Shown piece by piece: positions 13,979 to 39,349 of a stretch of 64,000 nt of DNA (position 1 is its first letter; every line of letters begins with the position of its first letter). Source of the stretch: Candidatus Jettenia caeni (GTDB taxonomy: Bacteria; Planctomycetota; Brocadiia; Brocadiales; Brocadiaceae); the NCBI GenBank assembly GCA_000296795.1, contig BAFH01000003.1, positions 124,401 through 188,400 on the forward strand. Direction: 5' to 3'. The position numbers and the translations under genes are program-made. The notes under the pieces are model-generated. The model did not search any database, had not been told where the DNA came from, and worked only from the letters and a program-made list of their open reading frames with translations.

Positions 13979-14306
13979 TAGTGCCTCGCCATATGATAAA
14001 AAGATGAACAGAAATTGCTTTTTCCTTTGTGGATATAGATATAATAAGATAAACCTGAAGAAAATTGCAAGGTATTTAATTCTTTTGATGTGGTGAAAAT
14101 GGAAGAAGACATATCTTTTCAGATGTGTGGAATTTCAATAATGACATGAATATTCCGGGGAGGCTGCGTGCCGATGGGAATTTTGCTGATATGTATAATA
14201 TCCTCATATTCTCTTAGGCATGTGGTTTTTTATCTCGCGGGAATGCAATTTTGGTTATGATTGTTTCCTGGAAAAATCCTAGATAGATTTCGTTGCTCCG
14301 TGAAGC
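13979..14306. other. Intergenic region
   Basis: 328 bases between two minus-strand genes. I see no gene, RNA or strong hairpin. Confidence 0.4.
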
Positions 14307-15725: not shown

Positions 15726-16413
15726 GGATGTTAAAAAGGGTAATGATTCTTTTGATAGGGATAATGTTTATTGAAACCTTTGAAAACGTGCTTATAGGTG
15801 AACTGAACGGCCGGGTATATTTGTGACATGGACGTTGAGTCAAGAACTTCTCCATTCCCATGAAGAACTCTCTGAAAGAGAATTCAGTTGTATTTCGACC
15901 GAGGTAGTAATATTAGTTATTCTATGATATTGTATAGACGAAGCTCTTCTTTATCAAAGGAGTTATTTGGTCTTGCATAGAGAAGCTCATCAATATCATC
16001 TCACGTTAAAACAAGAAGTTATAAAAAATAATTATAAGTATGTATTGTAACAAATTTAAGGAATTAAATAACACAAAATTTTAATAAATACAATATATTT
16101 TTCAAATTTTTACAAGGAAATAACCCACTTTTCTCTATTTTTCTGAAATTATTTCTATCTTTAAAGATAGATTGAATCTCATAACCTCAATTCAACAAGA
16201 ATGAATAAAGACTCAATGATAGATATATCGTTTCTCTTTTGTAGTGTTTCATGGAAAACGGCGAACTAGGAAATATAAGGATTTTACCGTAAAAAGGCAT
16301 TTTCAATCCCTGGAAATTTTATTGCATTTCGTGGAGAAATTTGTTTCACTAAATCGGGTTTCATTAGGTTCTGTATCTATACTGCATAAACTATTGAAAG
16401 GAGCCAATCTATT
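15726..16413. other. Long AT-rich divergent intergenic region
   Basis: 688 bases between the divergent speA and pyruvoyl decarboxylase genes; no supportable gene. A perfect 16-nt palindrome CTATCTTTAAAGATAG lies at 16155-16170 and could be an operator. GAAAGGAG at 16395-16402 is the ribosome site of the gene that follows. The block 16020-16140 is extremely AT-rich. Confidence 0.45.
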
Positions 16414-21044: not shown

Positions 21045-23327
21045 ATGAAAAATAGAGTACAGATTGAAGCAATCATAAGAAATCTTCAAGGCGCTGCAAG
21101 AGACTCTAAGACGAACAAACTATCAGAGAACATCATTGCTTATGACGAATACAGGAAGATCCATAAGAGCGCTTCTTTGTACCAATTTGGCATAATCCCC
21201 GCGAAAGAATCATCATCGGTGCTTGCAGAGAATGAAACTAATCATGTCGCTTGTGAAAACGCTATTTTCGAAATGGCAGAAAAGAATATAGAGAATTTTT
21301 CCTCCGAAGATATACATAAGAAACGCAAAGAAACGATTGAATCTGCCTTGAGACTACTTATGGGTCTTTATAAGGATAGACATGAAAAACTTCAGCCGAG
21401 AACCTTTGTCCTCATCGCAAAGGCATACCTTCTGAGAAGCCTTATTACTCGTCCAAAAGGTATAACGATACCCGAAAAGAAAAAAGAGGCGCTGAAAAAA
21501 GGGATTGGCTTTGTTGAAAGTGCCATTAAAAAAATCCAATCCTCCGAAAATATTTTATCTCATTCTTCTGATATAGATTTGCTTGAGAAGGCATGGAGGA
21601 TCAAAAGTCAGTTGTATCTTGAGTATTATCGGGTTAACAAGGATGAATGTGACAAAAATACATTAAAAGAAGTTCTCGAAAATTCCCTAATATCGGGATG
21701 TGATAAATTTGACAAAAATATCGAAGACGTACAGATTGCTATCCGCTACTGTGAATTAGAGAGTAGTAGAGAATATTTGGAACAAATTATTTCCTCTCAC
21801 CTGGAAGGTATAGAATTTGAGAAGGCCAGGGCATACAAACTCCTTGAACTTGAAAATGAAAATGAAGATGAAATAAGAAAAAGCATGAAGGTTGTTATTG
21901 AAGAGTATTTATCGGGTTTTTCTGACCCATTATGGGAAGATGCAGTTGAGTTTATCAATAAACTTAAATCCGACAATAAGAATTGCTGGAAGGAACTATC
22001 GTTAGATATGTATAAGGTTTGCCGAGAACAAGAGGCGGAAACTGCGTCTCTCCATTTGCGTTGGTACTGGTCAAGACAGAGAAGGCTTTACGACCTGGCA
22101 TTCATTGCAGCAGATAAAGAAGAAGAAAAGGCAAAAATTGCCGATTCATTGAAAAGTCGCCTCTCGCTTCGTTGGTCAGCATTAGAAGAGACGGGTAAAA
22201 AATCAAAAAATAAACGGGAAAAAGAAGAAATAAGCAGAATCCTTGAAGCCGAAGCAGTAGCGATGCTTGGAGGATATATCAAGGGTGCACGGAAGATCTT
22301 AAAAAAGAGGAGAAGACCTTTACCTGATGAGCAACGTTCCATACCAAAAGACTGGATAGTCATCCATTTTTATGTAAATCAATTAGAAAACAAGTGCTAT
22401 GCCCTTATTTATAACAAGGATGAAAATACCTGGAAGTGTGAATTTGTTAAAGAATACCAAAGATTGTTTCATGTCTTTTTGACTTGGCAGACAAACTATA
22501 ACCGATGTAAAGAGAGGGCTGCGGATTCCCTTGTGCAACTCTGCAAAGAGATTGGGAATGCCATGCCCTTTCTCTTTGATGAATGTATTATTCCACAAGA
22601 TAAAAATGTTTTATTCATTCCCCACGATTTCCTGCATCGATTGCCGCTTCATGGGGCAATACATGAAAAAAACAACGGTGTATTTTTAGAAAATCATCCA
22701 TGCTGTTACCTTCCTGCGTGGTCATTTGCTGCGAAAGAAAATAATGCGGTAGTACAGGGAAGCATCTTGCTCAAGAATTTCCCTGAATATTCATATGAGG
22801 AGTTAGTTTCCAATTCAACACTATGGACTTCTCCGGTAAAAGACCCGGCGAGTCCTGATGACCTCAAAACAATTATCGCTTCACCGGAAATGCTTGTTAT
22901 TCTTTGTCATGGAGAAGCAGATGCTGTAAACCCTTTCAATGCCAGGCTTAAGTTAACAGGAAACGGCATATCGCATCTCGAGATATTACAAAGTACAAAG
23001 ATGATTTTAAAAGGCAGTAAAATAATCCTGGGCGCTTGTGAAACAGACCTCGTACCGCCACTATCAGATATTATGGATGAACATCTGTCTATTACTACAG
23101 CATTTCTTACAAACGACGCCAGGGAGATTTTGGGAACGATGTACGAGGCACTTGATGTACGCATATCAAGCATCATTCAAAAGATATATAGGCAAGAACA
23201 TTATAGTAGTATGATGAAGCAATTGTGGGAATGGCAAAAAGTTGGGGTAGAAAATTATCGTGAAAATGGTGATACACCAGCATTTTATAACACCGTTGTT
23301 TTTCGTGTTATTGGATTATCAATATGA
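21045..23327 (+). CDS. csx29: Csx29 (TPR-CHAT) caspase-like protease, type III-E
   Basis: 760 residues. Residues 1-430 are helical with TPR-like pairs (for example RTFVLIAKAYLL); residues 435-760 are a CHAT caspase-family domain. The catalytic dyad is His622 in VILCHGEAD and Cys665 in ILGACETD. In the studied type III-E systems this protein binds Cas7-11; target RNA recognition switches on its protease, which cuts Csx30. The TPR part docks on the effector. The ATG has no obvious ribosome site and follows a strong promoter. Its stop overlaps the start of the sigma factor gene (ATGA), so translation is coupled. Function is from homology; activity of this copy is not shown. Confidence 0.93.
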   Translation: MKNRVQIEAIIRNLQGAARDSKTNKLSENIIAYDEYRKIHKSASLYQFGIIPAKESSSVLAENETNHVACENAIFEMAEKNIENFSSEDIHKKRKETIESALRLLMGLYKDRHEKLQPRTFVLIAKAYLLRSLITRPKGITIPEKKKEALKKGIGFVESAIKKIQSSENILSHSSDIDLLEKAWRIKSQLYLEYYRVNKDECDKNTLKEVLENSLISGCDKFDKNIEDVQIAIRYCELESSREYLEQIISSHLEGIEFEKARAYKLLELENENEDEIRKSMKVVIEEYLSGFSDPLWEDAVEFINKLKSDNKNCWKELSLDMYKVCREQEAETASLHLRWYWSRQRRLYDLAFIAADKEEEKAKIADSLKSRLSLRWSALEETGKKSKNKREKEEISRILEAEAVAMLGGYIKGARKILKKRRRPLPDEQRSIPKDWIVIHFYVNQLENKCYALIYNKDENTWKCEFVKEYQRLFHVFLTWQTNYNRCKERAADSLVQLCKEIGNAMPFLFDECIIPQDKNVLFIPHDFLHRLPLHGAIHEKNNGVFLENHPCCYLPAWSFAAKENNAVVQGSILLKNFPEYSYEELVSNSTLWTSPVKDPASPDDLKTIIASPEMLVILCHGEADAVNPFNARLKLTGNGISHLEILQSTKMILKGSKIILGACETDLVPPLSDIMDEHLSITTAFLTNDAREILGTMYEALDVRISSIIQKIYRQEHYSSMMKQLWEWQKVGVENYRENGDTPAFYNTVVFRVIGLSI

Positions 23328-23968
23328 GTAAAAATGCAGAAGAAATACTTCATTCCTGCCTCGAAATGAGAGGGTCTGGAAAACTTTGTGTTGAATGCTC
23401 AGTTCTCAAAAAAGGAACGTGTCAAATATTGATGCATGAAATACTGAAAGTCAAAGATGCATTAAAATTACCCAAAGATGATATCCGGGATATAATCTCA
23501 GAATCAATTGAAGCTATTCAGCTTGGCAACTTTAAAGGAACCACCCATATCCAGTTTAGGGTATGGGTACGAAGAATAATACAAAACAAGAAGAATGATT
23601 ATTTTAGAAATAAATATAAAAGAAAAGAACATGAGAATGCACTCCCCATTCCAATGGATGATGAGAAACACGAGATTATCTTATTTGATAAACCAGATGC
23701 AACTCAGGCAGACGAATTTAAACGCATTGAAAATGAGCATGATGTGGAAAAAATTTTACAGAGTTTAAGGAAAAAGGTAATTGAGGGTGAAATTGAAAAA
23801 AATGATCTTGATTTAGTACAAGCCTGTTATGATGGTTTTAAGGAAGGCTTATCTCAGGAAGAAATAGCAAAGAGCCTATCTTTAAAACCAAATACTCTCA
23901 ATCAAAACTTAAGCCGCCTGAGAAAAAAATTGAAGGCTGAAAGAGAGGAATATTGCAGGAATGATTAA
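23324..23968 (+). CDS. ECF/RpoE-like sigma factor of the type III-E locus (CASP-sigma)
   Basis: 214 residues. The region-2-like segment is around residues 55-105 (DIISESIEAIQLGNF, FRVWVRRIIQNKKNDYFRN), with an acidic linker, and region 4 with a helix-turn-helix is near the C-terminus (GLSQEEIAKSLSLKPNTLNQNLSRLRKKL). In studied type III-E loci the matching sigma factor is held by Csx30 and freed when Csx29 cuts it. Unusual: an N-terminal cysteine group (HSC, then CVEC, then GTC, residues 11-33) that could bind zinc or iron and sense the redox state or stabilise the fold. The gene overlaps csx29 by 4 bases and csx31 by 8. Confidence 0.85.
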   Translation: MSKNAEEILHSCLEMRGSGKLCVECSVLKKGTCQILMHEILKVKDALKLPKDDIRDIISESIEAIQLGNFKGTTHIQFRVWVRRIIQNKKNDYFRNKYKRKEHENALPIPMDDEKHEIILFDKPDATQADEFKRIENEHDVEKILQSLRKKVIEGEIEKNDLDLVQACYDGFKEGLSQEEIAKSLSLKPNTLNQNLSRLRKKLKAEREEYCRND

Positions 23969-25259
23969 CATGACGAACATACCAATAGGCCATGTTTTTC
24001 CAGAAGCTTTAGTAATAGACAGAGATATTTATAATAAACGATGGATACTTAAAGTGGTTACAGATAACAATGAAAAAAAAGATACTGTAAAGCTAAAGTC
24101 GAAAATAAGTGGCTTTAATGAAATTTTACAAGAAACCAAACTTATCTTGGCTGATAAGTATGTACCACCTGGCGTAGAAATTAAAGAAACAGAAATAGTA
24201 AAAATTCTTGTAGTAATAAAAAAAGAACAGAACAAAGCATACGTTGCACTAAAAGGATACAGTAAAATCCTGAGAGATCATTTCTATTTTAAATATCTGC
24301 TTAACGAATCCATTAAAACCCTACTTGGCATTCCTATTGAAGCTCCTCTTTCTAGAAGTAAAGTTATTTATAAACCAAAAAAATCCAATTGGAAATTGTG
24401 GTCTAATAAATTGAGAGAGGATTGTGGAGAACAGTTTAAAAACAACTTCAAAGTGGAAGATGAAGTTTACAATGTTGATATCCCATTTTTAAATGTATAT
24501 ATAGTAAGGGGAAAAGATTACGTTTTTCCTGTATTTGGTTTTAAATATCTTTCCACGTTAATGGGGAAACTATTATTTTATCCTGATATTATCGATACAA
24601 ATGGTAATTCTGAGAGGAGTGTTTATAGAACAGATGGTTTGAATAATTTCCCCATGCAATTCACAGCTAAAATTAAAAATAGTGGTGCCCTCAAAGATGT
24701 TCGTGTTTTTTTGCACGGTTTTACGTATCCAGCAAAGTGGCACTTTGGCATATGGAAGCATATGTTTTCCTTATTGCCAGGCGCGAACGAAGATGAAACC
24801 GCATTATGGGAAAAAATGTTGAGGTATAGCTTCTTTCCAGAGAAAACTTTTAAATTTTGCAAACCAAATCAGGATAACAGCTCCTGTGATGAAGAACATT
24901 GTGTTTCATTATCGTTATTTAAAGATATACACCCCCAGATAAAAGATTATTGCAGGTTGTATTTAGAACAATTTGTCACTTTACTTAAGTCAAATACGAT
25001 TAATAATGTAGCAATATTTAAAGACAGACACTCCTGTAATAAAATCGAATTGATTTGTGTTTGTCAAAATAAGGGTATCTACCAGAAGGCGATATTTCGT
25101 GGAGTATGTTATAATTGGGATAGTAATAATTCCCATTTTGTATTTCATTTGACGCCTGTTACTATGTACTTAGATAAAAATAATAAATTATTTCATATGC
25201 GCACAAAGGATAAATCTATTTTTTCTGGAAGTTTGTGTGAGATAAAGCAATGCAATTAA
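23961..25259 (+). CDS. csx31: Csx31, type III-E accessory protein
   Basis: 432 residues, named from size, position in the operon and company of Csx29, sigma factor, Csx30 and Cas7-11; I recognise no general domain. The N-terminal 100 residues are beta-rich. A cysteine cluster in the middle (FCKPNQDNSSCDEEHCVS, about residues 302-320) and the layout GDLDI/RGVCYNWDSN in the tail suggest a metal site and a RAMP-remote or CRISPR-associated (TIGR03986-like) fold. In related systems Csx31 binds Csx30 and is thought to act with the sigma factor. An alternative start is ATG 23970, which has AGGA better spaced. Overlaps its neighbours at both ends. Confidence 0.65.
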   Translation: MINMTNIPIGHVFPEALVIDRDIYNKRWILKVVTDNNEKKDTVKLKSKISGFNEILQETKLILADKYVPPGVEIKETEIVKILVVIKKEQNKAYVALKGYSKILRDHFYFKYLLNESIKTLLGIPIEAPLSRSKVIYKPKKSNWKLWSNKLREDCGEQFKNNFKVEDEVYNVDIPFLNVYIVRGKDYVFPVFGFKYLSTLMGKLLFYPDIIDTNGNSERSVYRTDGLNNFPMQFTAKIKNSGALKDVRVFLHGFTYPAKWHFGIWKHMFSLLPGANEDETALWEKMLRYSFFPEKTFKFCKPNQDNSSCDEEHCVSLSLFKDIHPQIKDYCRLYLEQFVTLLKSNTINNVAIFKDRHSCNKIELICVCQNKGIYQKAIFRGVCYNWDSNNSHFVFHLTPVTMYLDKNNKLFHMRTKDKSIFSGSLCEIKQCN

Positions 25260-26986
25260 CAGACAAAAGTAGAAACGAATTGTTTAGCGCTCTCCTTGAA
25301 TGGGGTAAGTCACACATGCTTTCGCCAGAAATTGTTCAAGATATCTCTGAGATCGAGGAGAACTGCGAGCCTTTTATAAAAAGTGATGAATTTACAAACT
25401 TTTTATTAAATTCAGTGGAAAAAATCAGGCGGCAAGTAGAATTTGCAATTTCCTTGTTTACCAATATAGAGCTAGTTACTGCAACTGATGAAGATTCTCT
25501 ATGGCATGATGCAGAGGTGTCTTTTATTGCCTTCGATCGAGTAAACTATTTGATGGAGGTATTACAGTTTTTAATTGTACCCCGCAAAAAGGAAATTGCT
25601 GAAAAAGCTATGAAGGCGTTAGATACCATATTTGAAAAAACAATAGGCTGGCTTGAAGAAAGTGAGTTTTCACCATTAAGGTTAGTAGTACTTAATGAAT
25701 CCCGCCGTTATCATCTTGAACAAATACCAGAAGATGAACGATACAGGTTCCCTTGGTATGAATTATATTCGGATTATAGTGAAAATACCCTGGAAATAAT
25801 TATTGAAAACTTCGACACTTTTTTGTCGGGAAAATGGGAAAAATTAACGAGGGAGATACCCCAAGAGTACCTGCATGAAATATCGCTTGAATTAAAAAGA
25901 GATAAACTATTACTTTCTCGAATAAAACAAGAGGCATCTTATCATAAAAGATTACTCGCTGCGGTATCAAAACCCTCATCTCTTAAGTTATGGCGATTGG
26001 GAGATGAAGCGGCATTGGATTACTTTCTTCCTGGTGGGGTAAAAAAATCTGGTGCAGTGCGAGTTAGTTTAAAATTGATAGAAGATGCAAAGATTGCTTT
26101 TGAGGCAGATGAGATTTGTTGGAAATTCCTTGCTGCTTTTTGTGGGCCAAATTTGGATGATAAACAACGCCTCTCCCTGCTTGATAAAGTGGAGGAAAGG
26201 ATAAAGAAAATTGATATACATAAAATTTCAGAAAATGAAAATATCCTGAAAACACTAAAATCTTGGTTTGAGGGAAATTGCGATAATGCAAAACTTATTA
26301 AGATTTCTTTTGACACTTGGATTAAAATGATGGAAGAAAAAGCAATCAACATGCATGCTGTAGAGTTTGACGAATCGCCAGAAAAGTTGTGGAATGCCAT
26401 AATGGAACTTCAAAAAGGGAGAATGGGCGCTTCAAATTCTGTTGAAAAATATATAAACGATTTTGTTAATGGGTGCCGACAAGTATGGCAAATTTTCAAA
26501 TCGACCGTTGATGAACCATCGGTATTGTATGGTGCTCGGGCTATTGCTGCATCATCTGAAAAGTCTGTGCAACCAAGAAAGTTAGAACTCAATAATAATC
26601 CAATTCTTCTTTCGTTGAAGCCGAACCCTAAAGGAGAATATATTATTTTATCATCGCTGGCATTAAAAAGGGTAGTTCTTGGTGAAGGTGTTGAGGATTA
26701 TGAGAAGATATGGAACTATCTTGAGCATACCAAAAATGATTACTGGTGCGGCTGTTTTATTACAAATGATGACAAACCTGATGTAGCTTCTGTACAACAA
26801 ATAGAGAATCGAATTTTGGCAAAAAAAACGAGAGATTATAAAAAAGCAATTATTGGTGTATCTCCTGAAAAAATCGTTTTAGAAGAATTCATTCAGGAAT
26901 TGCCGGCTGTGATATTTGAAGGAAAAGGCCCGTTAAAGGATTCTTTAGTTAAGAAGGTTATCATATTGGTTATTTCACTTGAATGA
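25250..26986 (+). CDS. csx30: Csx30, substrate of the Csx29 protease
   Basis: 578 residues, close to the 565 of D. ishimotonii Csx30. Residues 1-420 are almost wholly helical; 451-578 form a distinct alpha/beta domain (ILLSLKPNPKGEYIILSSLALKRVV). Between them a Ser/Lys-rich linker at about 421-450 (ARAIAASSEKSVQPRK) is the likely place of Csx29 cleavage, matching the reported cut near residue 427 in the Desulfonema protein. In that system intact Csx30 holds the sigma factor and Csx31, and cutting relieves this and slows growth. It overlaps csx31 by 10 bases and ends 9 bases before cas7-11. Family assignment rests on size, domain layout and locus. Confidence 0.75.
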   Translation: MQLTDKSRNELFSALLEWGKSHMLSPEIVQDISEIEENCEPFIKSDEFTNFLLNSVEKIRRQVEFAISLFTNIELVTATDEDSLWHDAEVSFIAFDRVNYLMEVLQFLIVPRKKEIAEKAMKALDTIFEKTIGWLEESEFSPLRLVVLNESRRYHLEQIPEDERYRFPWYELYSDYSENTLEIIIENFDTFLSGKWEKLTREIPQEYLHEISLELKRDKLLLSRIKQEASYHKRLLAAVSKPSSLKLWRLGDEAALDYFLPGGVKKSGAVRVSLKLIEDAKIAFEADEICWKFLAAFCGPNLDDKQRLSLLDKVEERIKKIDIHKISENENILKTLKSWFEGNCDNAKLIKISFDTWIKMMEEKAINMHAVEFDESPEKLWNAIMELQKGRMGASNSVEKYINDFVNGCRQVWQIFKSTVDEPSVLYGARAIAASSEKSVQPRKLELNNNPILLSLKPNPKGEYIILSSLALKRVVLGEGVEDYEKIWNYLEHTKNDYWCGCFITNDDKPDVASVQQIENRILAKKTRDYKKAIIGVSPEKIVLEEFIQELPAVIFEGKGPLKDSLVKKVIILVISLE

Positions 26987-26995
26987 GGTGTTATC

Positions 26996-29900
26996 TTGCA
27001 TACAATATTGCCTATCCATCTTACCTTCCTCGAACCCTACCGCCTTGCTGAGTGGCATGCAAAAGCTGATAGAAAGAAAAATAAGAGATACTTAAGAGGC
27101 ATGAGCTTTGCCCAGTGGCATAAGGATAAGGATGGCATAGGGAAACCTTATATCACAGGTACGCTTTTGAGGTCGGCAGTCCTAAATGCAGCGGAAGAGC
27201 TTATTAGTCTGAATCAGGGAATGTGGGCTAAAGAACCTTGCTGCAACGGCAAGTTTGAGACAGAGAAAGATAAGCCGGCTGTCCTCAGAAAGAGGCCAAC
27301 AATCCAGTGGAAAACCGGAAGACCGGCAATATGTGACCCTGAAAAACAGGAGAAGAAAGACGCATGTCCCCTCTGTATGCTCCTGGGCAGATTTGATAAG
27401 GCGGGCAAGAGACACAGGGATAATAAATACGATAAACATGATTATGACATCCACTTCGATAACCTGAACCTTATAACCGACAAAAAATTCTCCCATCCTG
27501 ATGATATTGCATCGGAGCGAATCCTCAACCGTGTTGATTACACCACTGGCAAGGCGCATGATTATTTTAAGGTATGGGAGGTGGATGATGATCAATGGTG
27601 GCAATTTACCGGTACAATAACGATGCATGATGATTGCTCAAAGGCGAAAGGGTTGCTCCTGGCTTCTCTGTGTTTTGTTGACAAGCTCTGTGGGGCGCTT
27701 TGCAGGATTGAAGTGACTGGAAATAATAGCCAGGATGAGAATAAAGAGTATGCGCATCCAGATACCGGTATTATTACATCCCTAAATTTAAAATACCAGA
27801 ACAATTCCACAATTCATCAAGATGCCGTACCATTATCCGGCTCCGCTCATGATAACGATGAACCTCCTGTTCATGACAATGACAGTTCCCTGGATAACGA
27901 TACGATTACGCTCCTGTCAATGAAAGCTAAAGAAATTGTCGGGGCTTTTCGTGAATCCGGCAAGATAGAGAAGGCAAGGACACTGGCAGATGTGATAAGG
28001 GCTATGCGGCTACAGAAACCGGATATTTGGGAAAAATTGCCAAAAGGCATAAATGATAAACACCACCTGTGGGATAGAGAAGTGAACGGCAAGAAGTTAA
28101 GGAATATATTAGAGGAATTATGGCGGCTCATGAACAAGAGGAACGCATGGAGGACATTCTGTGAAGTTCTGGGGAATGAACTCTACCGGTGTTATAAGGA
28201 AAAGACGGGTGGAATTGTGTTACGGTTCAGGACACTTGGCGAGACGGAGTACTATCCGGAACCGGAGAAAACAGAGCCATGCCTAATCTCAGATAATTCT
28301 ATACCAATTACACCACTTGGAGGTGTTAAAGAATGGATTATTATCGGGAGATTAAAAGCGGAGACGCCGTTTTATTTTGGTGTGCAGTCATCCTTTGATT
28401 CTACACAGGATGACCTGGACTTGGTTCCTGATATTGTCAATACTGATGAAAAACTTGAAGCAAATGAACAAACCAGCTTCAGGATACTGATGGATAAGAA
28501 AGGGCGTTACCGTATCCCTCGCTCACTCATAAGAGGCGTCCTCCGCAGAGATTTGAGAACGGCATTTGGCGGGAGTGGTTGCATTGTGGAATTAGGCAGA
28601 ATGATTCCATGCGATTGTAAGGTCTGTGCTATTATGCGAAAAATTACTGTAATGGATTCCAGGAGTGAGAATATCGAATTACCCGATATTCGTTATAGAA
28701 TCAGGCTAAACCCTTACACCGCTACGGTAGACGAGGGGGCGTTGTTTGATATGGAGATAGGACCGGAAGGGATTACTTTTCCGTTTGTTTTCCGTTATCG
28801 TGGGGAAGATGCGCTACCGCGTGAATTGTGGAGCGTAATTCGCTATTGGATGGATGGCATGGCCTGGCTTGGTGGTTCCGGATCTACGGGTAAAGGACGT
28901 TTTGCTCTTATCGATATAAAAGTGTTTGAATGGGATTTGTGTAATGAAGAAGGGCTTAAAGCATACATTTGTTCAAGAGGATTAAGAGGCATCGAAAAAG
29001 AAGTATTGCTTGAGAATAAAACGATAGCAGAAATTACTAATTTATTTAAAACAGAAGAAGTCAAATTCTTTGAATCATACAGTAAACATATTAAACAATT
29101 GTGTCACGAATGCATTATAAACCAAATATCCTTTTTGTGGGGACTTAGGTCTTATTATGAATATCTCGGTCCCCTGTGGACAGAGGTCAAATACGAAATC
29201 AAGATTGCCTCACCTTTATTATCCTCCGATACCATATCGGCCTTGCTGAACAAGGATAATATTGATTGTATAGCATATGAGAAGAGGAAATGGGAAAACG
29301 GTGGAATAAAATTTGTTCCAACCATCAAGGGCGAGACTATACGGGGTATTGTGAGGATGGCCGTTGGAAAGAGAAGCGGTGATCTGGGAATGGATGATCA
29401 TGAAGACTGTTCCTGTACCCTGTGTACGATCTTTGGCAATGAGCATGAGGCTGGCAAGCTGCGGTTTGAGGATTTGGAAGTCGTAGAGGAAAAATTACCG
29501 TCTGAACAGAATTCTGATAGCAATAAAATACCATTCGGCCCAGTTCAGGATGGCGATGGTAACCGGGAGAAGGAGTGTGTGACTGCGGTGAAGAGCTATA
29601 AGAAGAAACTCATTGACCACGTGGCAATTGATCGTTTCCATGGCGGTGCGGAAGATAAGATGAAGTTTAATACCTTGCCGCTTGCGGGAAGCTTTGAAAA
29701 GCCCATTATCCTGAAAGGTAGATTCTGGATAAAAAAGGACATTGTAAAGGACTATAAGAAAAAAATCGAAGACGCCATGGTTGATATACGGGACGGGTTG
29801 TATCCAATAGGCGGGAAAACAGGCATTGGGTATGGGTGGGTTACAGACCTTACCATCCTGAATCCCCAGAGCGGATTTCAAATTCCGGTAAAAAAAGATA

Positions 29901-32434
29901 TTTCCCCAGAACCAGGAACGTATTCTACTTATCCATCCCACAGTACCCCATCCCTTAATAAAGGCCATATTTATTACCCGCACTATTTCTTAGCGCCGGC
30001 AAATACGGTGCATCGTGAACAAGAGATGATCGGCCATGAGCAGTTTCACAAAGAACAGAAAGGGGAATTGCTTGTTTCAGGCAAGATTGTGTGCACCCTG
30101 AAGACCGTAACACCCCTTATCATCCCGGATACAGAAAATGAGGACGCCTTTGGTCTTCAAAACACATATTCCGGACATAAAAATTACCAGTTTTTTCATA
30201 TAAACGATGAAATTATGGTCCCCGGCTCAGAGATTCGGGGTATGATAAGTTCTGTTTATGAGGCGATTACCAATTCGTGTTTTCGCGTTTATGATGAAAC
30301 GAAATATATAACACGCCGGTTATCGCCTGAAAAAAAAGATGAATCAAACGACAAGAATAAGTCTCAAGATGATGCATCTCAAAAAATACGGAAAGGTTTA
30401 GTGAAAAAAACCGACGAAGGGTTTTCAATCATCGAAGTTGAAAGATATTCCATGAAAACCAAGGGCGGGACAAAGTTAGTTGATAAAGTTTACCGCCTTC
30501 CTCTCTATGATAGTGAAGCAGTTATAGCATCTATTCAATTTGAGCAGTATGGAGAAAAAAATGAAAAAAGGAATGCAAAGATTCGGGCTGCAATAAAACG
30601 GAATGAAGTAATTGCAGAAGTTGCCCGAAAAAATTTGATATTCCTCAGGTCCTTAACGCCGGAAGAATTGAAAAAGGTTTTACAGGGTGAAATACTGGTA
30701 AAATTTAGTCTTAAGTCAGGAAAAAATCCCAATGATTATTTGGCGGAATTACATGAAAACGGAACCGAGCGTGGATTGATAAAGTTTACCGGGCTTAACA
30801 TGGTGAATATAAAAAATGTAAATGAGGAAGATAAAGATTTTAATGATACCTGGGATTGGGAAAAGCTCAATATCTTCCATAATGCACACGAGAAGCGAAA
30901 TAGTCTTAAACAGGGATATCCAAGACCTGTCTTAAAATTTATAAAAGATCGGGTTGAATACACCATTCCCAAGCGGTGCGAGCGTATATTTTGTATTCCG
31001 GTAAAAAATACAATCGAATACAAAGTATCTTCAAAAGTCTGTAAACAATACAAAGATGTACTGAGCGATTATGAGAAAAATTTTGGGCATATTAACAAGA
31101 TATTTACCACAAAAATCCAAAAGAGAGAACTTACCGACGGTGATTTGGTCTATTTTATTCCCAATGAAGGCGCAGACAAAACCGTACAGGCTATCATGCC
31201 TGTGCCTCTTTCACGGATAACCGACAGCAGAACACTGGGAGAACGATTACCCCACAAAAACCTCTTGCCTTGCGTTCACGAGGTTAATGAAGGTCTTTTA
31301 TCCGGCATATTAGATTCTCTTGATAAAAAACTCCTTTCCATCCACCCGGAAGGCCTTTGCCCTACATGCCGGCTTTTTGGTACGACATATTACAAAGGAC
31401 GGGTTCGTTTCGGGTTTGCAAACCTTATGAACAAACCCAAATGGCTGACCGAGAGGGAAAATGGTTGTGGTGGGTATGTGACCCTTCCACTCCTTGAAAG
31501 ACCACGCCTGACATGGTCAGTACCCTCCGATAAATGTGACGTACCAGGGAGAAAATTTTATATCCATCATAATGGCTGGCAGGAGGTGCTAAGAAACAAC
31601 GATATAACACCAAAGACTGAAAATAATCGTACCGTAGAACCATTAGCTGCGGACAATAGATTTACCTTTGATGTCTATTTTGAGAATCTGAGGGAGTGGG
31701 AATTAGGGCTTCTCTGCTATTGCCTTGAACTTGAGCCGGGAATGGGGCATAAACTTGGCATGGGTAAGCCAATGGGCTTTGGTAGCGTAAAAATAGCAAT
31801 AGAAAGGTTACAGACCTTTACTGTTCATCAGGATGGTATAAACTGGAAGCCCTCCGAAAATGAAATTGGGGTTTATGTGCAGAAAGGAAGAGAAAAGCTG
31901 GTTGAGTGGTTTACCCCTTCGGCTCCGCACAAAAATATGGAATGGAACGGGGTAAAACACATCAAAGACCTCCGTTCTTTACTCAGCATACCCGGCGACA
32001 AACCCACCGTAAAATATCCCACCCTTAACAAGGACGCTGAGGGAGCAATATCTGACTATACGTATGAGCGGCTCTCTGATACAAAGCTGCTGCCTCATGA
32101 TAAACGGGTAGAATACCTGAGAACCCCGTGGAGTCCATGGAATGCCTTTGTGAAGGAAGCAGAGTATTCTCCTTCAGAAAAAAGTGATGAAAAGGGTCGT
32201 GAAACTATACGCACAAAACCTAAATCTCTACCTTCTGTGAAATCAATTGGTAAGGTTAAATGGTTTGATGAAGGTAAGGGTTTCGGTATTCTTATTATGG
32301 ATGACGGCAAAGAGGTATCGATAAGCAAGAATTCTATCCGGGGAAATATCTTGCTAAAAAAAGGTCAAAAGGTGACGTTCCACATTGTACAGGGGTTGAT
32401 ACCAAAGGCTGAAGATATAGAAATAGCGAAGTAA
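26996..32434 (+). CDS. cas7-11: Cas7-11 (gRAMP) single-protein RNA-targeting effector with C-terminal cold-shock domain
   Basis: 1812 residues, TTG start with GAGGTG six bases before. It processes its own crRNA and cuts complementary RNA. Four Cas7 units each keep a zinc-finger: CCNGKF/CPLC (82-127), CDCKVC (539-544), CSCTLC (805-810), CPTC (1455-1458); a Cas11-like helical part lies at about 305-400. His42 in FAQWH matches crRNA-processing His43 of D. ishimotonii Cas7-11; Asp473 and Asp757 align with its two RNA-cutting Asp429 and Asp654. An insertion in Cas7.4 spans about 1110-1380. After LRTPWSPW (1708-1715), where the Desulfonema protein ends, a charged linker leads to a cold-shock domain (1750-1812: GKVKWFDEGKGFGIL). 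The zinc and catalytic residues are intact, so it should be active. Confidence 0.95.
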   Translation: MHTILPIHLTFLEPYRLAEWHAKADRKKNKRYLRGMSFAQWHKDKDGIGKPYITGTLLRSAVLNAAEELISLNQGMWAKEPCCNGKFETEKDKPAVLRKRPTIQWKTGRPAICDPEKQEKKDACPLCMLLGRFDKAGKRHRDNKYDKHDYDIHFDNLNLITDKKFSHPDDIASERILNRVDYTTGKAHDYFKVWEVDDDQWWQFTGTITMHDDCSKAKGLLLASLCFVDKLCGALCRIEVTGNNSQDENKEYAHPDTGIITSLNLKYQNNSTIHQDAVPLSGSAHDNDEPPVHDNDSSLDNDTITLLSMKAKEIVGAFRESGKIEKARTLADVIRAMRLQKPDIWEKLPKGINDKHHLWDREVNGKKLRNILEELWRLMNKRNAWRTFCEVLGNELYRCYKEKTGGIVLRFRTLGETEYYPEPEKTEPCLISDNSIPITPLGGVKEWIIIGRLKAETPFYFGVQSSFDSTQDDLDLVPDIVNTDEKLEANEQTSFRILMDKKGRYRIPRSLIRGVLRRDLRTAFGGSGCIVELGRMIPCDCKVCAIMRKITVMDSRSENIELPDIRYRIRLNPYTATVDEGALFDMEIGPEGITFPFVFRYRGEDALPRELWSVIRYWMDGMAWLGGSGSTGKGRFALIDIKVFEWDLCNEEGLKAYICSRGLRGIEKEVLLENKTIAEITNLFKTEEVKFFESYSKHIKQLCHECIINQISFLWGLRSYYEYLGPLWTEVKYEIKIASPLLSSDTISALLNKDNIDCIAYEKRKWENGGIKFVPTIKGETIRGIVRMAVGKRSGDLGMDDHEDCSCTLCTIFGNEHEAGKLRFEDLEVVEEKLPSEQNSDSNKIPFGPVQDGDGNREKECVTAVKSYKKKLIDHVAIDRFHGGAEDKMKFNTLPLAGSFEKPIILKGRFWIKKDIVKDYKKKIEDAMVDIRDGLYPIGGKTGIGYGWVTDLTILNPQSGFQIPVKKDISPEPGTYSTYPSHSTPSLNKGHIYYPHYFLAPANTVHREQEMIGHEQFHKEQKGELLVSGKIVCTLKTVTPLIIPDTENEDAFGLQNTYSGHKNYQFFHINDEIMVPGSEIRGMISSVYEAITNSCFRVYDETKYITRRLSPEKKDESNDKNKSQDDASQKIRKGLVKKTDEGFSIIEVERYSMKTKGGTKLVDKVYRLPLYDSEAVIASIQFEQYGEKNEKRNAKIRAAIKRNEVIAEVARKNLIFLRSLTPEELKKVLQGEILVKFSLKSGKNPNDYLAELHENGTERGLIKFTGLNMVNIKNVNEEDKDFNDTWDWEKLNIFHNAHEKRNSLKQGYPRPVLKFIKDRVEYTIPKRCERIFCIPVKNTIEYKVSSKVCKQYKDVLSDYEKNFGHINKIFTTKIQKRELTDGDLVYFIPNEGADKTVQAIMPVPLSRITDSRTLGERLPHKNLLPCVHEVNEGLLSGILDSLDKKLLSIHPEGLCPTCRLFGTTYYKGRVRFGFANLMNKPKWLTERENGCGGYVTLPLLERPRLTWSVPSDKCDVPGRKFYIHHNGWQEVLRNNDITPKTENNRTVEPLAADNRFTFDVYFENLREWELGLLCYCLELEPGMGHKLGMGKPMGFGSVKIAIERLQTFTVHQDGINWKPSENEIGVYVQKGREKLVEWFTPSAPHKNMEWNGVKHIKDLRSLLSIPGDKPTVKYPTLNKDAEGAISDYTYERLSDTKLLPHDKRVEYLRTPWSPWNAFVKEAEYSPSEKSDEKGRETIRTKPKSLPSVKSIGKVKWFDEGKGFGILIMDDGKEVSISKNSIRGNILLKKGQKVTFHIVQGLIPKAEDIEIAK

Positions 32435-33358: not shown

Positions 33359-34564
33359 CTTGAAGACTAAAGGAAGGAATTAATGTCACGGTACGACTAA
33401 ATGGCACCACTAATTGTTGCCTTCTAAGTTCCTTCTTGAAGACTAAAGGAAGGAATTAATGTCACGGTACGTTTGTTTAACCACATGAGGCACACCGCCC
33501 TCGTGAGCTTGAAGACTAAAGGAAGGAATTAATGTCACGGTACGGAGATCGAGGATGTCCTCATAGTTGTCCGACGAGCTTGAAGACTAAAGGAAGGAAT
33601 TAATGTCACGGTACCTTCTAGCGCAAGGTTTTTCCCTGCTAGCTCCGCGATTTCTTGAAGACTAAAGGAAGGAATTAATGTCACGGTACACTTTCCTCTT
33701 TTTTTTTATTGTTTCGCGCCACAGAACCTCTTGAAGACTAAAGGAAGGAATTAATGTCACGGTACAGCGCAAGGTCCGCATTTTGCAGAAAAACCATTTG
33801 CTTGAAGACTAAAGGAAGGAATTAATGTCACGGTACAACGGGGCTTTGTTTGTGGTAAGAGCCCCATACTTGACTTGAAGACTAAAGGAAGGAATTAATG
33901 TCACGGTACACAACCAGCAGCCCTGTTAGATTACTATCATTTTCTTGAAGACTAAAGGAAGGAATTAATGTCACGGTACGGTATTAGCTCCTTTCGTCTG
34001 ATTTTAACAATTAGCACTTGAAGACTAAAGGAAGGAATTAATGTCACGGTACAAGAAAACGCAGAAAGTCCTATTTTTTTTAATCACTTGAAGACTAAAG
34101 GAAGGAATTAATGTCACGGTACAAAAACTACCACTTCTTAAATTAAAAATTAAACAACTTGAAGACTAAAGGAAGGAATTAATGTCACGGTACCAAGGAC
34201 GTTGGGAGAAACCAGTATATCAATCGCAAGCTTGAAGACTAAAGGAAGGAATTAATGTCACGGTACCGCCAGCTCCGCGATCTTACGCCCTAGTATAAAT
34301 CCCTTGAAGACTAAAGGAAGGAATTAATGTCACGGTACATAATTTTTTGCTTCAACCCAAGTCCCGTCAATCAATTTCTTGAAGACTAAAGGAAGGAATT
34401 AATGTCACGGTACATGTATTCATATTCATCTAATGTTCCTTCTGCGATGTCTTGAAGACTAAAGGAAGGAACTAATGTCACGGTACGAGAGGTTTAATCA
34501 CGACTTTTTTCTTGTCTTCCTCAACGTACTTGAAGACTAAAGGAAGGACTTAATGTTGCGGCCA
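33359..34564 (+). CRISPR. Type III-E CRISPR array, 17 repeats and 16 spacers
   Basis: 36-nt repeats beginning CTTGAAGACTAAAGG and ending AATGTCACGGTAC. Repeat starts: 33359, 33435, 33508, 33579, 33654, 33730, 33801, 33874, 33944, 34017, 34087, 34158, 34231, 34303, 34378, 34451, 34529. Spacers are 34-42 nt. The first 15 repeats are identical; repeat 16 has one change and repeat 17 is decayed in its last third, so the leader is on the left and the crRNA is on the plus strand. The 3' end ATGTCACGG-AC matches the crRNA tag of D. ishimotonii Cas7-11, supporting that orientation. No cas6 is needed because Cas7-11 cuts the repeat. Spacers 4 and 13 share a near-identical stretch. Confidence 0.98.
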
Positions 34565-34906: not shown

Positions 34907-35149
34907 ATGAGAAAGAAATTATTTGATCGTATAACAGTCAAGCCGGAAGTTTGTATGGGACAAGCTACTATACGGGGAATGCGAATTACCGTTGCCTTCG
35001 TACTTAAATTACTTGCTTCAGGTATGAGTCATGGAGAAATATTGAAGGCATACCCGGAACTTGAAGAGAAAGACATCCTTCAAGCGATAGAATATGCAGC
35101 ATGGCTTGCCGGAGAATACTATTATCCCCTTCAAGTCACTCATGAGTAG
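34907..35149 (+). CDS. DUF433 family antitoxin
   Basis: 80 residues with GGAAAGGAAGG upstream. It has the DUF433 pattern: RITVKPEVCMGQATIRGMRITV, then LLASGMSHGEILKAYPELEEKDILQAIEYA, a small winged-helix fold usually encoded before a DUF5615 PIN-like nuclease, as here. It probably neutralises the toxin and represses its own promoter. Because the toxin gene is broken, the antitoxin may be an orphan. The pair sits between the array and a decayed solitary repeat, so it may have inserted into an older, longer array. Confidence 0.8.
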   Translation: MRKKLFDRITVKPEVCMGQATIRGMRITVAFVLKLLASGMSHGEILKAYPELEEKDILQAIEYAAWLAGEYYYPLQVTHE

Positions 35150-35154
35150 AGGCT

Positions 35155-35532
35155 ATGAGATTAAAGTTTATAGCAGACGTACACATTTCACCACTTACTG
35201 TTAAAGAATTACAAAAAGCAGGGTATACGGTTACCCGTGTTACAGACAATCTTCCTTCTACGTCTTCCGACAGTGAGATTATTCAATTAGCAAGCAAAGA
35301 GCAGGCTGTAATTATTACTTAAGATTTAGATTTTTCCGCAATTATTGTTCAAAGCGGACTTAACAGCCCAAGTGTTGTTTCCTTGCGAGTTGCCGATGTC
35401 AAACCGGATATAATTACGAGAATTCTTTTGAATGTGCTACCTTCCGTAGAAGTTTTTATTGCTAAAGGGGCTATTGTATCAATAGACGAATACGGGTATC
35501 GTGTAAAAAAAATTCCTGTAGAAGATCAATGA
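35155..35532 (+). pseudogene. DUF5615 (PIN-like) toxin with an internal stop
   Basis: The reading frame from ATG 35155 encodes MRLKFIADVHISPLTVKELQKAGY, the family's N-terminus with its acidic site, then EQAVIIT, a TAA at 35320-35322, and continues in the same frame with DLDFSAIIVQSG to TGA at 35530. Relatives have a sense codon such as CAA in the TQDLDF motif, so a single C-to-T change explains it. Five bases separate it from the DUF433 gene. The 55-residue product should be inactive. Confidence 0.8.
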
Positions 35533-35764: not shown

Positions 35765-38080
35765 ATGATAGCAGAAAACCTTCTCGAACAGTTCTTAAGC
35801 ACGTCTAACTTCCTTACCGCATATCGCCGCATTGCCTCAAAAAAGGCCGCCGGTGGGCTTGATGGTATTACCGTAGAGGAGTTTGGTCACCGTCTTGATC
35901 AACATATCACCAAACTGCAGAAGGATATACGAGAACGCCGTTATATTCCTCAACCTGCCGCAGTAACATATATTCCAAAATTTAATGAGGAAAATGAGTG
36001 GAGAGAGTTAGGACTTCCCTCCGTTGCCGATAAGGTAGTTCAGGCCGCCATGCTGGAGGTGGTAGAACCTCTTGCCGAGAAGATGTTTTTAGATTGCAGC
36101 TATGCCTATCGGCCCGGCACGGGTCACTATAAGGCTATACGGCGTGTTGAAAACAGCCTGAACAATAGAAAAAAGACGTGGGTAGTGCAGAGGGATATTG
36201 ATAATTTCTTCGATACCGTAGACCATAACCGTCTCATGGAACAGTTTTCTGCCCTGGTGCAGGGAGAACCCACAATGGTCGAGCTGGTGGCCTTGTGGTG
36301 CAGGATGGGTCTGGTAGAAAAAAATGGACGCTGGCGGAACGTGCAGGCAGGTATACGTCAGGGGGGTGTTATCTCTCCGCTTCTGGCAAACCTCTACCTC
36401 CACCCCCTGGATGTGTTTGCCACAAAATTGGGAGTTGATTGGATACGTTATGCCGATGACTATGTGATATTGGGTGAGAGCCAGGAAGAGGTTGTTTCAT
36501 CTGATGTCCAAATTGTGGAATTTTTAAAGGATTCCCTCGGTTTGATGCTGAATCGTGATGAATCTTCTCCAAAACACATTGATGAAGGCTTCACCTTTCT
36601 GGGAGTCCGTTTTTGCGGAAAAGAGAGGGCGATTGATACAAAAAAGATAAAAAAGATGAAAAAGAAGATACGATGGCTTCTGGCACAAAAAATGGTAAAA
36701 ACTCCGGAAGAGGTTATATCGAAATTGACCAACCAGGTAGAGAGTTGGCAACGATATTATAGTTTCCTTAACCCCACCCGGCAGTTTTCTGAGATTGATT
36801 GTTTCATAGAAAAAGAGTTCCTGACTCTGGCTACTTCGAAGATTCAGACGGGAAAGTGGGATCGTATTCCTCCCCAGGGACTTTCCTTTCCGTCTTTGAT
36901 TGCGGATGGGAAAAGAGACGGTTTTAAAAAATGGGAAGGCCTCTGGGCACAAGCCATAAAAACGGTGGAGACAGATGATGTCAACCATGATACTGCCAGG
37001 ATAAATCACTCTGTTGAGAAAAAGATCTCAAGAAAAAGACAAAAGTGCAGGAAGGAATCCGGTGAAAGCGGGAATCTGATTGTTACAACGCCCGGACATT
37101 TTGTCGGGAAAAGAGGGGAACGGATTGTGGTTATGAGCAAACAGAGGATTGTAAGCGAACTACCGGTGGTACGGCTGTCAGGACTGACTTTAAGCGGAAG
37201 GGGTGTTTCCATCTCCGGTGATGTGGTAGAACTTTGTATGAAGAAGGACGTCTACATCCATTTCGTAGATAACCTGGGCAAGATTATTGCGGTAGTTGGT
37301 CCGCCGGGCGGAAGTTCCGGTGAGGTTTCTTTGTTACAGATAACTGAAAGAGATAAAGAAAAAGGTCTCACCCTTGCAAAGATGTTTATTCTTGGAAAGG
37401 TCAAAAACCAGTTTGCGCTCCTGAAATATTATTTCAAATACCCGTTGAACCGTGAAAACGGCTTTGGAAAGATTTTTGTAGAAAGGCGACAATTTCTGAG
37501 CGATGGTATTGAGAAGATTAAAAACGCCACAGTTCTTTCTGATCCGGAAACATTCCGGCAGCAGATGATGGGATGGGAAGGGGCATTCGGGGCTGCATAT
37601 TGGGAGATCGTGGGACATCTGTTTCGTAATGGGGTACAGTTCTCCGGACGGGTAAGGCACGGCGCTACTGACCTGGTAAATTCGGCTTTGAACTACGGCT
37701 ATGGCATCCTCTATGGAGATTGTTTAAATGCAGTTATCAGGACAGGACTTAATCCTATGGCGGGTTTTCTTCACAGCTATCAGACGGGAAAACCAACCCT
37801 TATTTATGACCTTATTGAAGAGTTCCGTCCGTTTGCCGTTGATAGGGGGATATTCACGATGCTGAACAGGGGAGAAAGGCTGGAGCAAGGGGATGACGGC
37901 ATGCTTGCCACGGAAACCAGGAAAAAGATTTCAAAATCGGTCATAAGCCGCCTTTCAAACGAGGTCTGGTTTCACGGCCGCAGGCTTACTCTTCGGGAGG
38001 TTATTCAGGAACAGGCTTACAATATTAAAAGACATCTCTCTGATAAAGCCCAATACCATCCTTTTCTGGGACGTTGGTAG
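35765..38080 (+). CDS. cas1: Reverse transcriptase-Cas1 fusion
   Basis: 771 residues. Residues 1-350 are a group II intron-like reverse transcriptase: motif around RDIDNFFDTVDH (143-154), RQGGVISPLLANLYLH (198-213) and the YADD catalytic box at 229-232. A linker follows, then Cas1 from about 436 to 771, with the metal ligands Glu605 (GWEGAFG), His670 (GFLHSYQTGKP) and the acidic pair at 682-686 (DLIEEF). Such fusions can take up spacers from RNA in other type III systems. No Cas6 domain is fused and no cas2 follows, although Cas1 normally acts with Cas2; cas2 must be elsewhere or be dispensable here. All catalytic residues are intact. Confidence 0.95.
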   Translation: MIAENLLEQFLSTSNFLTAYRRIASKKAAGGLDGITVEEFGHRLDQHITKLQKDIRERRYIPQPAAVTYIPKFNEENEWRELGLPSVADKVVQAAMLEVVEPLAEKMFLDCSYAYRPGTGHYKAIRRVENSLNNRKKTWVVQRDIDNFFDTVDHNRLMEQFSALVQGEPTMVELVALWCRMGLVEKNGRWRNVQAGIRQGGVISPLLANLYLHPLDVFATKLGVDWIRYADDYVILGESQEEVVSSDVQIVEFLKDSLGLMLNRDESSPKHIDEGFTFLGVRFCGKERAIDTKKIKKMKKKIRWLLAQKMVKTPEEVISKLTNQVESWQRYYSFLNPTRQFSEIDCFIEKEFLTLATSKIQTGKWDRIPPQGLSFPSLIADGKRDGFKKWEGLWAQAIKTVETDDVNHDTARINHSVEKKISRKRQKCRKESGESGNLIVTTPGHFVGKRGERIVVMSKQRIVSELPVVRLSGLTLSGRGVSISGDVVELCMKKDVYIHFVDNLGKIIAVVGPPGGSSGEVSLLQITERDKEKGLTLAKMFILGKVKNQFALLKYYFKYPLNRENGFGKIFVERRQFLSDGIEKIKNATVLSDPETFRQQMMGWEGAFGAAYWEIVGHLFRNGVQFSGRVRHGATDLVNSALNYGYGILYGDCLNAVIRTGLNPMAGFLHSYQTGKPTLIYDLIEEFRPFAVDRGIFTMLNRGERLEQGDDGMLATETRKKISKSVISRLSNEVWFHGRRLTLREVIQEQAYNIKRHLSDKAQYHPFLGRW

Positions 38081-38192
38081 TTTTTCGTTTGTAATAGAGG
38101 CCATCCCAAAACAGTAATTTAGTAACTATAATTATTTGAGATATAAGTATTTATAAGTATAGAAATCTTCATACTCCGCAAGCTGGTTCCTG

Positions 38193-38311
38193 GGGTGGCG
38201 CTGACAAGCTTTGTTTGTCAGTGCTTTGTAATCCATAATCTATGTGTAAATAAGCACGAACAAAAGATTCCCGTTCAAGACGTACGGGGACATGGTTTGT
38301 CCGTGCCACCC
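38193..38311. mobile_element. MITE-like palindromic element, most complete copy (B)
   Basis: 119 bases bounded by GGGTGGC (38193-38199) and GCCACCC (38305-38311), with further inverted matches inside (CTGACA against TGTCCG). An inner hairpin CTGACAAGC-TTTGTTTGTCAG resembles copy A at 12497. It codes for nothing and is of the size expected for a non-autonomous element. It lies next to a transposase fragment, but a link to IS630 is not shown. Confidence 0.55.
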
Positions 38312-38439
38312 GGTCTGGAGTTATCTAAAAACCTCACTGTTAGTATCAAGAATCATTTGAAGAGAGAAAGAGGTTTCCGTACAAAAATAGGTTTTGGGAT
38401 AGCTTCTGGTATATCATTCTGTAGAGCAAGCGAGACCGA

Positions 38440-38664
38440 TTGATAAAACTTTCGAGGTCGAAATTATGGGTGATACCTAACGAGGCTGAGATAAGACCGC
38501 ACAAGGTTCGGTATTACCTTGAAAAAAGGGATTCTGTGTTTGACGAGAAAATGGCACAGGTATTATGTGTGTACAAGGAGGTTGAACTCATCAATGAAAA
38601 GAGGGCGCATGACAAAGACTTTGTCATAGACAGAATCACCATAAGTTATGGCGAAAAATATTGA
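38440..38664 (+). pseudogene. IS630-family transposase fragment
   Basis: 74 codons matching the middle of IS630-type transposases: IRPHKVRYYLEKRDSVFDEKMAQVLCVYKEVELI and ITISYGEK, the latter being where the catalytic region DE begins in intact proteins. Both the N-terminal helix-turn-helix and the catalytic C-terminus are missing. It runs into the end of the convergent PIN toxin gene (19-base overlap). A remnant left by insertion or deletion next to the CRISPR locus. Confidence 0.75.
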
Positions 38665-39083
38665 ATGAAAACCATTCCTTCTTTTTCCGCAGCATGGTTT
38701 AGTTTTGCATCATTACTTGAAAAATACACCTCTGATCTGATTTTGTGCTTTAAATTGATGGCTGATGCCAGATGAACGGCATCAAAACCCCTGAGAAGAT
38801 ACTTTTGGGCAATATCACCGGCAAGCCGTATTAAACCATCTGTTACCTCAAGTATAAAACAACTTTCCCAGTCTCTGGTAAAATCTTCTGCAATTTTTTG
38901 CAGTATCTCCTTAGAAATCCCATCGTCTTTCTGTTTCCTTGCAAAGGCAGCCCTTGCTTCGGCATAAGCTACTTTTGAAGTAGAAACAACTGTTGCAGTG
39001 CGGACCATATCCTTCGTTCTTTTAGAGCCAATTTCCTCAACGTACAATTTTACCAGGTCGCTGGTATCAAGATAAAGGATCAC
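38646..39083 (-). CDS. vapC: PIN-domain ribonuclease toxin (VapC type)
   Basis: 145 residues. The PIN acidic residues are visible: Asp6 in MILYLDTSDLVKLY, Glu in YAEARAAF, Asp in FDAVHLASA and the C-terminal SSNDAKLNHAAEKEG. Such toxins cut tRNA, rRNA or mRNA in a metal-dependent way. The gene overlaps the antitoxin gene upstream by 4 bases, the usual arrangement. The last codons overlap the IS630 fragment on the other strand. Looks intact; target unknown. Confidence 0.85.
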   Translation of the reverse strand: MILYLDTSDLVKLYVEEIGSKRTKDMVRTATVVSTSKVAYAEARAAFARKQKDDGISKEILQKIAEDFTRDWESCFILEVTDGLIRLAGDIAQKYLLRGFDAVHLASAINLKHKIRSEVYFSSNDAKLNHAAEKEGMVFIQYFSP

Positions 39084-39349
39084 CTTCTCTCCTCAATGAC
39101 AATCTCAGAAACGGTCTTCCCTTTGATTTTAACAGGATATTCACTTCCCACGGGTTTACCGCCTTTCCACACAGCAAAACCTTCTTTAACAAGAGAAAGG
39201 AGTTGGGGGTCTTCGTTTGCTCTTTCCACAGGAACAATGGTGGCTATTACCTTTTCCCTTTCGGTAATTACTATCTTTTCGCCTTTCTTTATTTCGCGGA
39301 GATAATGGCTTAATCTGTTTTTTAACTCTTTAATACCGACAGTAATCAT
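39080..39349 (-). CDS. Phd/YefM-family antitoxin
   Basis: 89 residues. The N-terminus MITVGIKELKNRLSHYLREIKKGEKIVITEREKVIATIVP is the Phd/YefM DNA-binding fold; the C-terminal part (KIKGKTVSEIVIEERR) is the flexible toxin-binding tail. It should neutralise the PIN toxin and repress the operon through the GTAGCTAC sites just upstream. Confidence 0.85.
   Translation of the reverse strand: MITVGIKELKNRLSHYLREIKKGEKIVITEREKVIATIVPVERANEDPQLLSLVKEGFAVWKGGKPVGSEYPVKIKGKTVSEIVIEERR

What the first reader, a model, noticed from the sequence alone, without database searches (positions are those of the whole stretch)
33395..34528. Spacers read as protein-coding on the reverse strand: antisense to mRNA
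In the reverse complement of every spacer at least one frame is open and many look like real peptides: spacer 14 KLIDGTWVEAKNY, 16 YVEEDKKKVVIKPL, 15 IAEGTLDEYEY, 3 SSDNYEDILDL, 12 LAIDILVSPNV. Most spacers are pyrimidine-rich on the crRNA strand. This fits crRNAs complementary to mRNA, as an RNA-cutting system needs, and would fit RNA-derived uptake by RT-Cas1. Open frames alone prove little in 35-nt pieces; the peptide quality and base skew are the signal.
Basis: partly seen in the sequence, partly recalled or inferred. Interest (0 to 1): 0.7.

Follow-up and report, generated by a model that had tools for sequence, protein, structure and literature searches.

The report
Type III-E CRISPR spacers read antisense
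The 16 stored guide sequences of an already published RNA-cutting CRISPR system (Candidatus Jettenia caeni) lean towards being complementary to messenger RNA, but the same lean appears in related RNA-targeting systems without a reverse transcriptase, so it fits the known rule for such systems and is no sign of uptake from RNA.

Summary
The array is real: 17 repeats of 36 nt and 16 spacers (33359-34564) between gRAMP/Cas7-11 and RT-Cas1 in a type III-E locus. Spacer 12 is identical to the native spacer 12 published for Candidatus Jettenia caeni Craspase, which fixes species and crRNA strand (+). The cited evidence is weak: all 16 spacers have an open frame on BOTH strands (30 frames forward, 25 reverse), as random pieces of the window do (P=0.53). 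The pyrimidine excess is small (55.9%, P=0.06), and a codon model favours antisense without significance for this array alone (P=0.15). Pooled with the only other usable anammox III-E arrays the bias is clear: 31 spacers, estimated 89% antisense (66-99%), P=0.003. Type I arrays of the same order show none (51%, n=542). Cas10 type III arrays WITHOUT a reverse transcriptase show the same bias (89%, n=65). So 'antisense to mRNA' is supported, but as a general type III property, best explained by selection for working spacers; 'RNA-derived uptake by RT-Cas1' gains no support from it. No credible protospacer was found in phages, plasmids, IMG/VR probes or 59 genomes, so the direct strand test could not be done.

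The parts
33359..34564 (+). CRISPR array, 17 repeats of 36 nt (CTTGAAGACTAAAGGAAGGAATTAATGTCACGGTAC), 16 spacers of 34-42 nt; crRNA strand is +
   Evidence: degenerate last repeat; spacer 12 identical to published native spacer 12
33395..33729 (+). spacers 1-5 (with repeats between): spacers 1, 2, 4, 5 score antisense-coding (log-odds 4.2, 1.9, 2.6, 2.2), spacer 3 neutral (0.2)
33766..34230 (+). spacers 6-12: no antisense-coding signal (log-odds -3.6 to 0.4), several very A+T-rich
34267..34528 (+). spacers 13-16 (oldest, leader-distal): all score antisense-coding (2.3, 3.1, 4.8, 2.8)
34529..34564 (+). degenerate terminal repeat, marks the leader-distal end
   Evidence: 6 mismatches to consensus
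26996..32434 (+). gRAMP / Cas7-11 effector with a cold-shock domain at the C terminus (aa about 1752-1801)
21045..23327 (+). TPR-CHAT (Csx29) protease
23324..23968 (+). sigma factor (CASP-sigma position)
   Evidence: Sigma70_r4_2, E 1e-5, just below the curated cut-off
23961..25259 (+). probable Csx31 (by position only)
   Evidence: no family hit; inference from order of genes in III-E loci
25250..26986 (+). Csx30
   Evidence: 8eey_E, E 2e-22
35765..38080 (+). RT-Cas1 fusion, YADD motif intact

Best explanation
This is the known type III-E (Craspase) array of Candidatus Jettenia caeni. Its crRNAs, like those of Cas10 type III systems in related bacteria, are mostly complementary to the mRNA of the invaders they came from. 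The likely mechanism is selection: Cas7-11 binds and cuts transcripts only, so spacers inserted the other way round give no protection and are lost. An orienting step during acquisition by RT-Cas1 is not needed to explain the bias. Shown here: the array, the crRNA strand, the pooled antisense bias, its absence in type I arrays, its presence in type III arrays without RT. Inferred: that the spacers come from protein-coding viral or plasmid sequence, and that selection rather than acquisition causes the bias.
For: Coding-strand log-odds, pooled III-E arrays of two genomes: mean 1.20 over 31 spacers, close to 1.22 for true antisense gene pieces, P=0.003, antisense fraction 0.89 (0.66-0.99), pyrimidine 57.1% P=0.0007. 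Type I arrays of the same order: mean 0.00, fraction 0.51 (0.44-0.57), n=542. Cas10 type III without RT: fraction 0.89 (0.73-0.99), n=65; with RT: 0.89 (0.72-0.99), n=59; typing by Cas10, Cas3 and RT. Type III coding-strand preference is published from mapped spacers (PMC8482600). Spacer 12 with native leader and repeats makes active Jc-Craspase (PMC11106740).
Against: The window's array alone is not significant (P=0.15 two-sided) and spacers 6-12 carry no antisense signal. For III-E the score exceeds that of reversed, uncomplemented spacers only slightly (1.20 vs 0.85, P=0.84), so the evidence is mainly base skew, not codon order. The only other III-E array found (Desulfobacterales, 4 distinct spacers) shows no bias. 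No protospacer confirms a strand.
Confidence: 0.72

Rival explanations
1. The bias arises at acquisition: RT-Cas1 captures mRNA fragments and integrates the cDNA so that the crRNA is antisense, giving a mechanistic strand bias independent of selection.
For: RT-Cas1 with an intact YADD motif lies beside the array. In Marinomonas, without interference, RNA-derived spacers had a moderate antisense bias that vanished when the RT was deleted (PMC5576922).
Against: Type III arrays without RT are equally biased (III-E vs RT-less P=0.71; RT vs RT-less type III P=0.58). The Marinomonas authors argue against a strong orienting mechanism. No Cas2 gene lies next to this RT-Cas1.
Confidence: 0.12
2. There is no antisense bias in this array; spacers are inserted at random orientation and the apparent peptides are chance plus selective reading.
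For: Array alone: P=0.15; forward strand equally open; two of the five cited peptides are no better than the forward reading.
Against: The second III-E genome is significant by itself (13 of 15 spacers positive, P=0.0014), and Cas10 type III arrays with and without RT agree. An all-sense array is strongly disfavoured (summed log-odds 15).
Confidence: 0.13
3. The pyrimidine skew reflects a base preference of the acquisition or crRNA machinery, unrelated to coding strand.
For: For III-E the reversed-sequence control keeps most of the score (0.85 of 1.20), so base composition alone carries it.
Against: The skew has the size and sign of antisense gene pieces (gene pieces 54.1% pyrimidine, III-E 57.1%) and RT-less type III arrays, with other Cas1 proteins and repeats, show the same skew together with a codon-order signal (P=0.001).
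Confidence: 0.1

Closest known systems
Type III-E Craspase of Candidatus Jettenia caeni (Jc-Craspase, PMC11106740)
   Same: Identical: native spacer 12 of the published array equals 34194-34230 letter for letter
   Different: Nothing in the locus itself; the passages of that paper that were read do not discuss the origin or strand of the other spacers
Coding-strand (mRNA) preference of type III spacers (Vink et al. 2021, PMC8482600)
   Same: Same direction of bias, same proposed reason (crRNA must pair with transcripts)
   Different: There measured on mapped protospacers; here inferred from spacer sequence alone, for III-E arrays without any mapped target
RT-Cas1 systems of Marinomonas and Arthrospira (PMC5576922, PMC5513706)
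   Same: RT-Cas1 fusion near a type III array; spacers with almost no database matches
   Different: Cas10-type effectors there; the Marinomonas acquisition cassette includes Cas2, none is adjacent here

Membership tests
Type III-E CRISPR-Cas (Craspase) | single-protein gRAMP/Cas7-11 effector | tested here: met
   PADLOC gRAMP 2342 bits; solved gRAMP/Cas7-11 chains E=0
Type III-E CRISPR-Cas (Craspase) | TPR-CHAT and Csx30 partners | tested here: met
Type III-E CRISPR-Cas (Craspase) | no Cas10 in the locus | tested here: met
   the genome's only Cas10 palm match is on another contig, C4:125461
Type III-E CRISPR-Cas (Craspase) | crRNA-guided RNA cutting and protease activation | not testable with these tools
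   shown for this very system in PMC11106740
Type III coding-strand (mRNA-complementary) spacer preference | spacers target the coding strand more than the template strand | tested here: inconclusive
   indirect score positive for pooled III-E arrays (P=0.003) but not for the window alone (P=0.15); no protospacer found
RT-Cas1 acquisition of spacers from RNA | RT fused to Cas1 with catalytic YADD motif | tested here: met
RT-Cas1 acquisition of spacers from RNA | cognate Cas2 | tested here: not met
   no Cas2 match on contig C3; the genome's four Cas2 genes are on C2 and C4; action in trans is possible
RT-Cas1 acquisition of spacers from RNA | spacers actually acquired from RNA | not testable with these tools
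   needs an acquisition assay; strand bias does not discriminate

The most novel reading that the evidence does not exclude
The III-E RT-Cas1, working without a local Cas2, takes up viral mRNA fragments and integrates them in a fixed antisense orientation, so that the array is directly a record of transcripts.
Probability: 0.08. Interest if true: 0.65.

Novelty: new member of a known kind. Interest (0 to 1): 0.3.

Why it matters
RT-associated and type III spacers seldom match known sequences, so their strand is hard to measure. A coding-strand score computed from the spacers alone separates type III from type I arrays in this bacterial order without any protospacer, extends the type III antisense rule to III-E, and shows that the bias needs no reverse transcriptase to explain it.

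Tried and rejected
Open frames and 'peptide quality' as evidence: rejected, both strands are open and two of five cited peptides do not discriminate. Protospacer searches: blastn of all 16 spacers against phages and plasmids gave only 23-27 nt partial hits at E of 3 or more; tblastn of nine peptides against phages, none; 59 related genomes including self-targeting, only the array itself. Leads that failed: IDGTWVEA of spacer 14 occurs in a collagen-like ORF (L106) with different flanks; AELAGKNLA of spacer 4 occurs in 11 viral contigs, all in frame, in proteins of which two were tested and are DUF4326, but the C-W/S-C that follows is absent from the spacer and DNA identity is only 21-24/39, so it is not the protospacer, and no DUF4326 gene occurs in 59 related genomes; VEEDKKKVV of spacer 16 in three related contigs is a charged, simple stretch with 26/42 identity. 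An RT versus no-RT difference was looked for and not found.

Full report
What is there. The window holds a type III-E CRISPR locus: TPR-CHAT (21045-23327), a sigma factor (23324-23968), a probable Csx31 (23961-25259, by position), Csx30 (25250-26986), gRAMP/Cas7-11 (26996-32434), a CRISPR array (33359-34564) and RT-Cas1 (35765-38080). The array has 17 repeats of 36 nt and 16 spacers; the last repeat (34529-34564) is degenerate, so the leader is on the left and the crRNA strand is +. [quoted passage not shown] The system is therefore published, and its crRNA strand rests on experiment.

The observation. It is true that every reverse-complemented spacer has an open frame. It is also true of every forward spacer, with more open frames in total (30 against 25), and random pieces of the window give 16 of 16 in 53% of trials. 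The cited peptides of spacers 14, 15 and 16 do score better antisense; those of spacers 3 and 12 do not. Pyrimidines make up 332 of 594 bases (55.9%), sign-flip P=0.06 over spacers.

A fairer test. A codon model was trained on half of 466 genes from the window and related genomes, and each spacer scored as log P(reverse complement coding) minus log P(forward coding), averaged over frames. Held-out antisense gene pieces of 37 nt score 1.22 on average, 76% above zero. The 16 spacers average 0.93 (10 above zero), P=0.15 two-sided (0.07 one-sided), estimated antisense fraction 0.74, interval 0.41-0.97. This array alone is suggestive, no more.

More III-E arrays. III-E is rare: among 59 relatives and 392 genomes of the phylum, only the window's genome, G016 (Kuenenia hertensis, one stop in gRAMP, no recognisable array), G025 (Brocadiaceae S40-1) and truncated remnants in G001 and G032 carry gRAMP. 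A pattern-limited scan of the species-genome collection added one Desulfobacterales locus. G025 has two III-E arrays before its RT-Cas1: 15 spacers, mean 1.48, 13 of 15 above zero, P=0.0014. Together 31 spacers: mean 1.20, P=0.003, antisense fraction 0.89 (0.66-0.99), pyrimidine 57.1%, P=0.0007. The Desulfobacterales array (4 distinct spacers) is uninformative.

Controls. Arrays near other Cas1 genes in the same order were fetched and typed by Cas10, Cas3 and RT. Type I arrays: 542 spacers, mean 0.00, fraction 0.51 (0.44-0.57). Cas10 type III without RT: 65 spacers, mean 1.10, fraction 0.89 (0.73-0.99); adding two arrays typed only by repeat and Cas1 gives 128 spacers, 0.93. Cas10 type III with RT beside or fused to Cas1: 59 spacers, mean 1.24, fraction 0.89 (0.72-0.99). 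III-E differs from type I (P=0.002), not from RT-less type III (P=0.71), and type III with and without RT do not differ (P=0.58). One RT array (L061) first gave a strong opposite score; its repeat ends in ACTGAAAC on the other strand, so it had probably been read backwards; because that correction was made after seeing the score, note that without L061 the RT group still gives 0.85 (0.68-0.97).

Limits. Scoring each spacer reversed but not complemented keeps base composition and destroys codons. For III-E this control is nearly as high (0.85 against 1.20, P=0.84), while for RT-less type III the drop is clear (P=0.001). So for III-E the evidence is mainly a purine/pyrimidine skew of the sign and size that antisense gene pieces have; with 31 spacers the codon-order part cannot be told from zero or from the expected 0.70. 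The model is trained on bacterial genes; the viral genes at hand, from other hosts, score weakly (0.41). Spacers of one array are not fully independent, and only two III-E genomes contribute.

Protospacers. None credible in phages, plasmids, 59 related genomes (no self-targeting) or seven IMG/VR spacer scans. This is usual for RT-associated arrays (PMC5513706) and for type III in general (PMC8482600). Spacers 4 and 13 share ATCGCGGAGCT on the reverse strand and continue CTA GCA against CTG GCG, that is IAELA with synonymous differences only in the antisense frame; spacers 4 and 6 share (N/D)LAL in frame. Two spacer pairs sharing a 10-mer have P=0.02 by shuffling. This suggests related target genes but rests on small numbers.

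Reading. The bias fits the published rule that type III spacers prefer the coding strand (PMC8482600) and the published requirement that type III crRNAs be antisense to their RNA targets (PMC5576922). Because RT-less type III arrays show it equally, it gives no support to RNA uptake by RT-Cas1, which remains possible and untested.

Noticed in passing
window 32249-32398 (aa about 1752-1801 of the gRAMP ORF): gRAMP carries a cold-shock domain fused at its C terminus (Pfam CSD E 1.6e-7; CspB structures). The related gRAMP of G025 seems to share it; no paper in the held library mentions both Cas7-11 and a cold shock domain.
   Followed up: partly
window 35765-38664: No Cas2 gene lies beside the III-E RT-Cas1; the genome's four Cas2 genes are on other contigs with other CRISPR loci, so acquisition would need Cas2 in trans.
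   Followed up: partly
L018 / L048-L049 (G001) and L017 / L050 (G032): Other genomes of the family hold only a C-terminal gRAMP fragment (532-aa frame, profile positions 1098-1494) with a short Cas1 fragment nearby: a decayed III-E locus.
   Followed up: no
L045 (G016, Kuenenia hertensis) 5358-15800: gRAMP is interrupted by one TAG and the array is reduced to single repeat-like sites at 12526 and 15759 on either side of an intact RT-Cas1.
   Followed up: no
window 34194-34230 region: spacers 6-12 (33766-34230): The antisense signal is confined to spacers 1-5 and 13-16; the middle block has none and includes A+T-rich spacers (GC 17-38% for 8-11).
   Followed up: no
L047 466-1240: Two spacers of the G025 III-E array read HKDDTLKQFAER and DDNDTLEVCER antisense, like the same protein motif in two related genes.
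   Followed up: no
window 34907-35322 and 38646-39349: Toxin-antitoxin-like pairs flank the array and RT-Cas1: DUF433 with a truncated DUF5615, and PIN with Phd/YefM antitoxin.
   Followed up: no
window 19213-20214: A radical-SAM protein resembling prokaryotic viperin models (PADLOC pVip, E 8e-17) lies just before the III-E genes on the other strand; similarity to other radical-SAM enzymes was not excluded.
   Followed up: no
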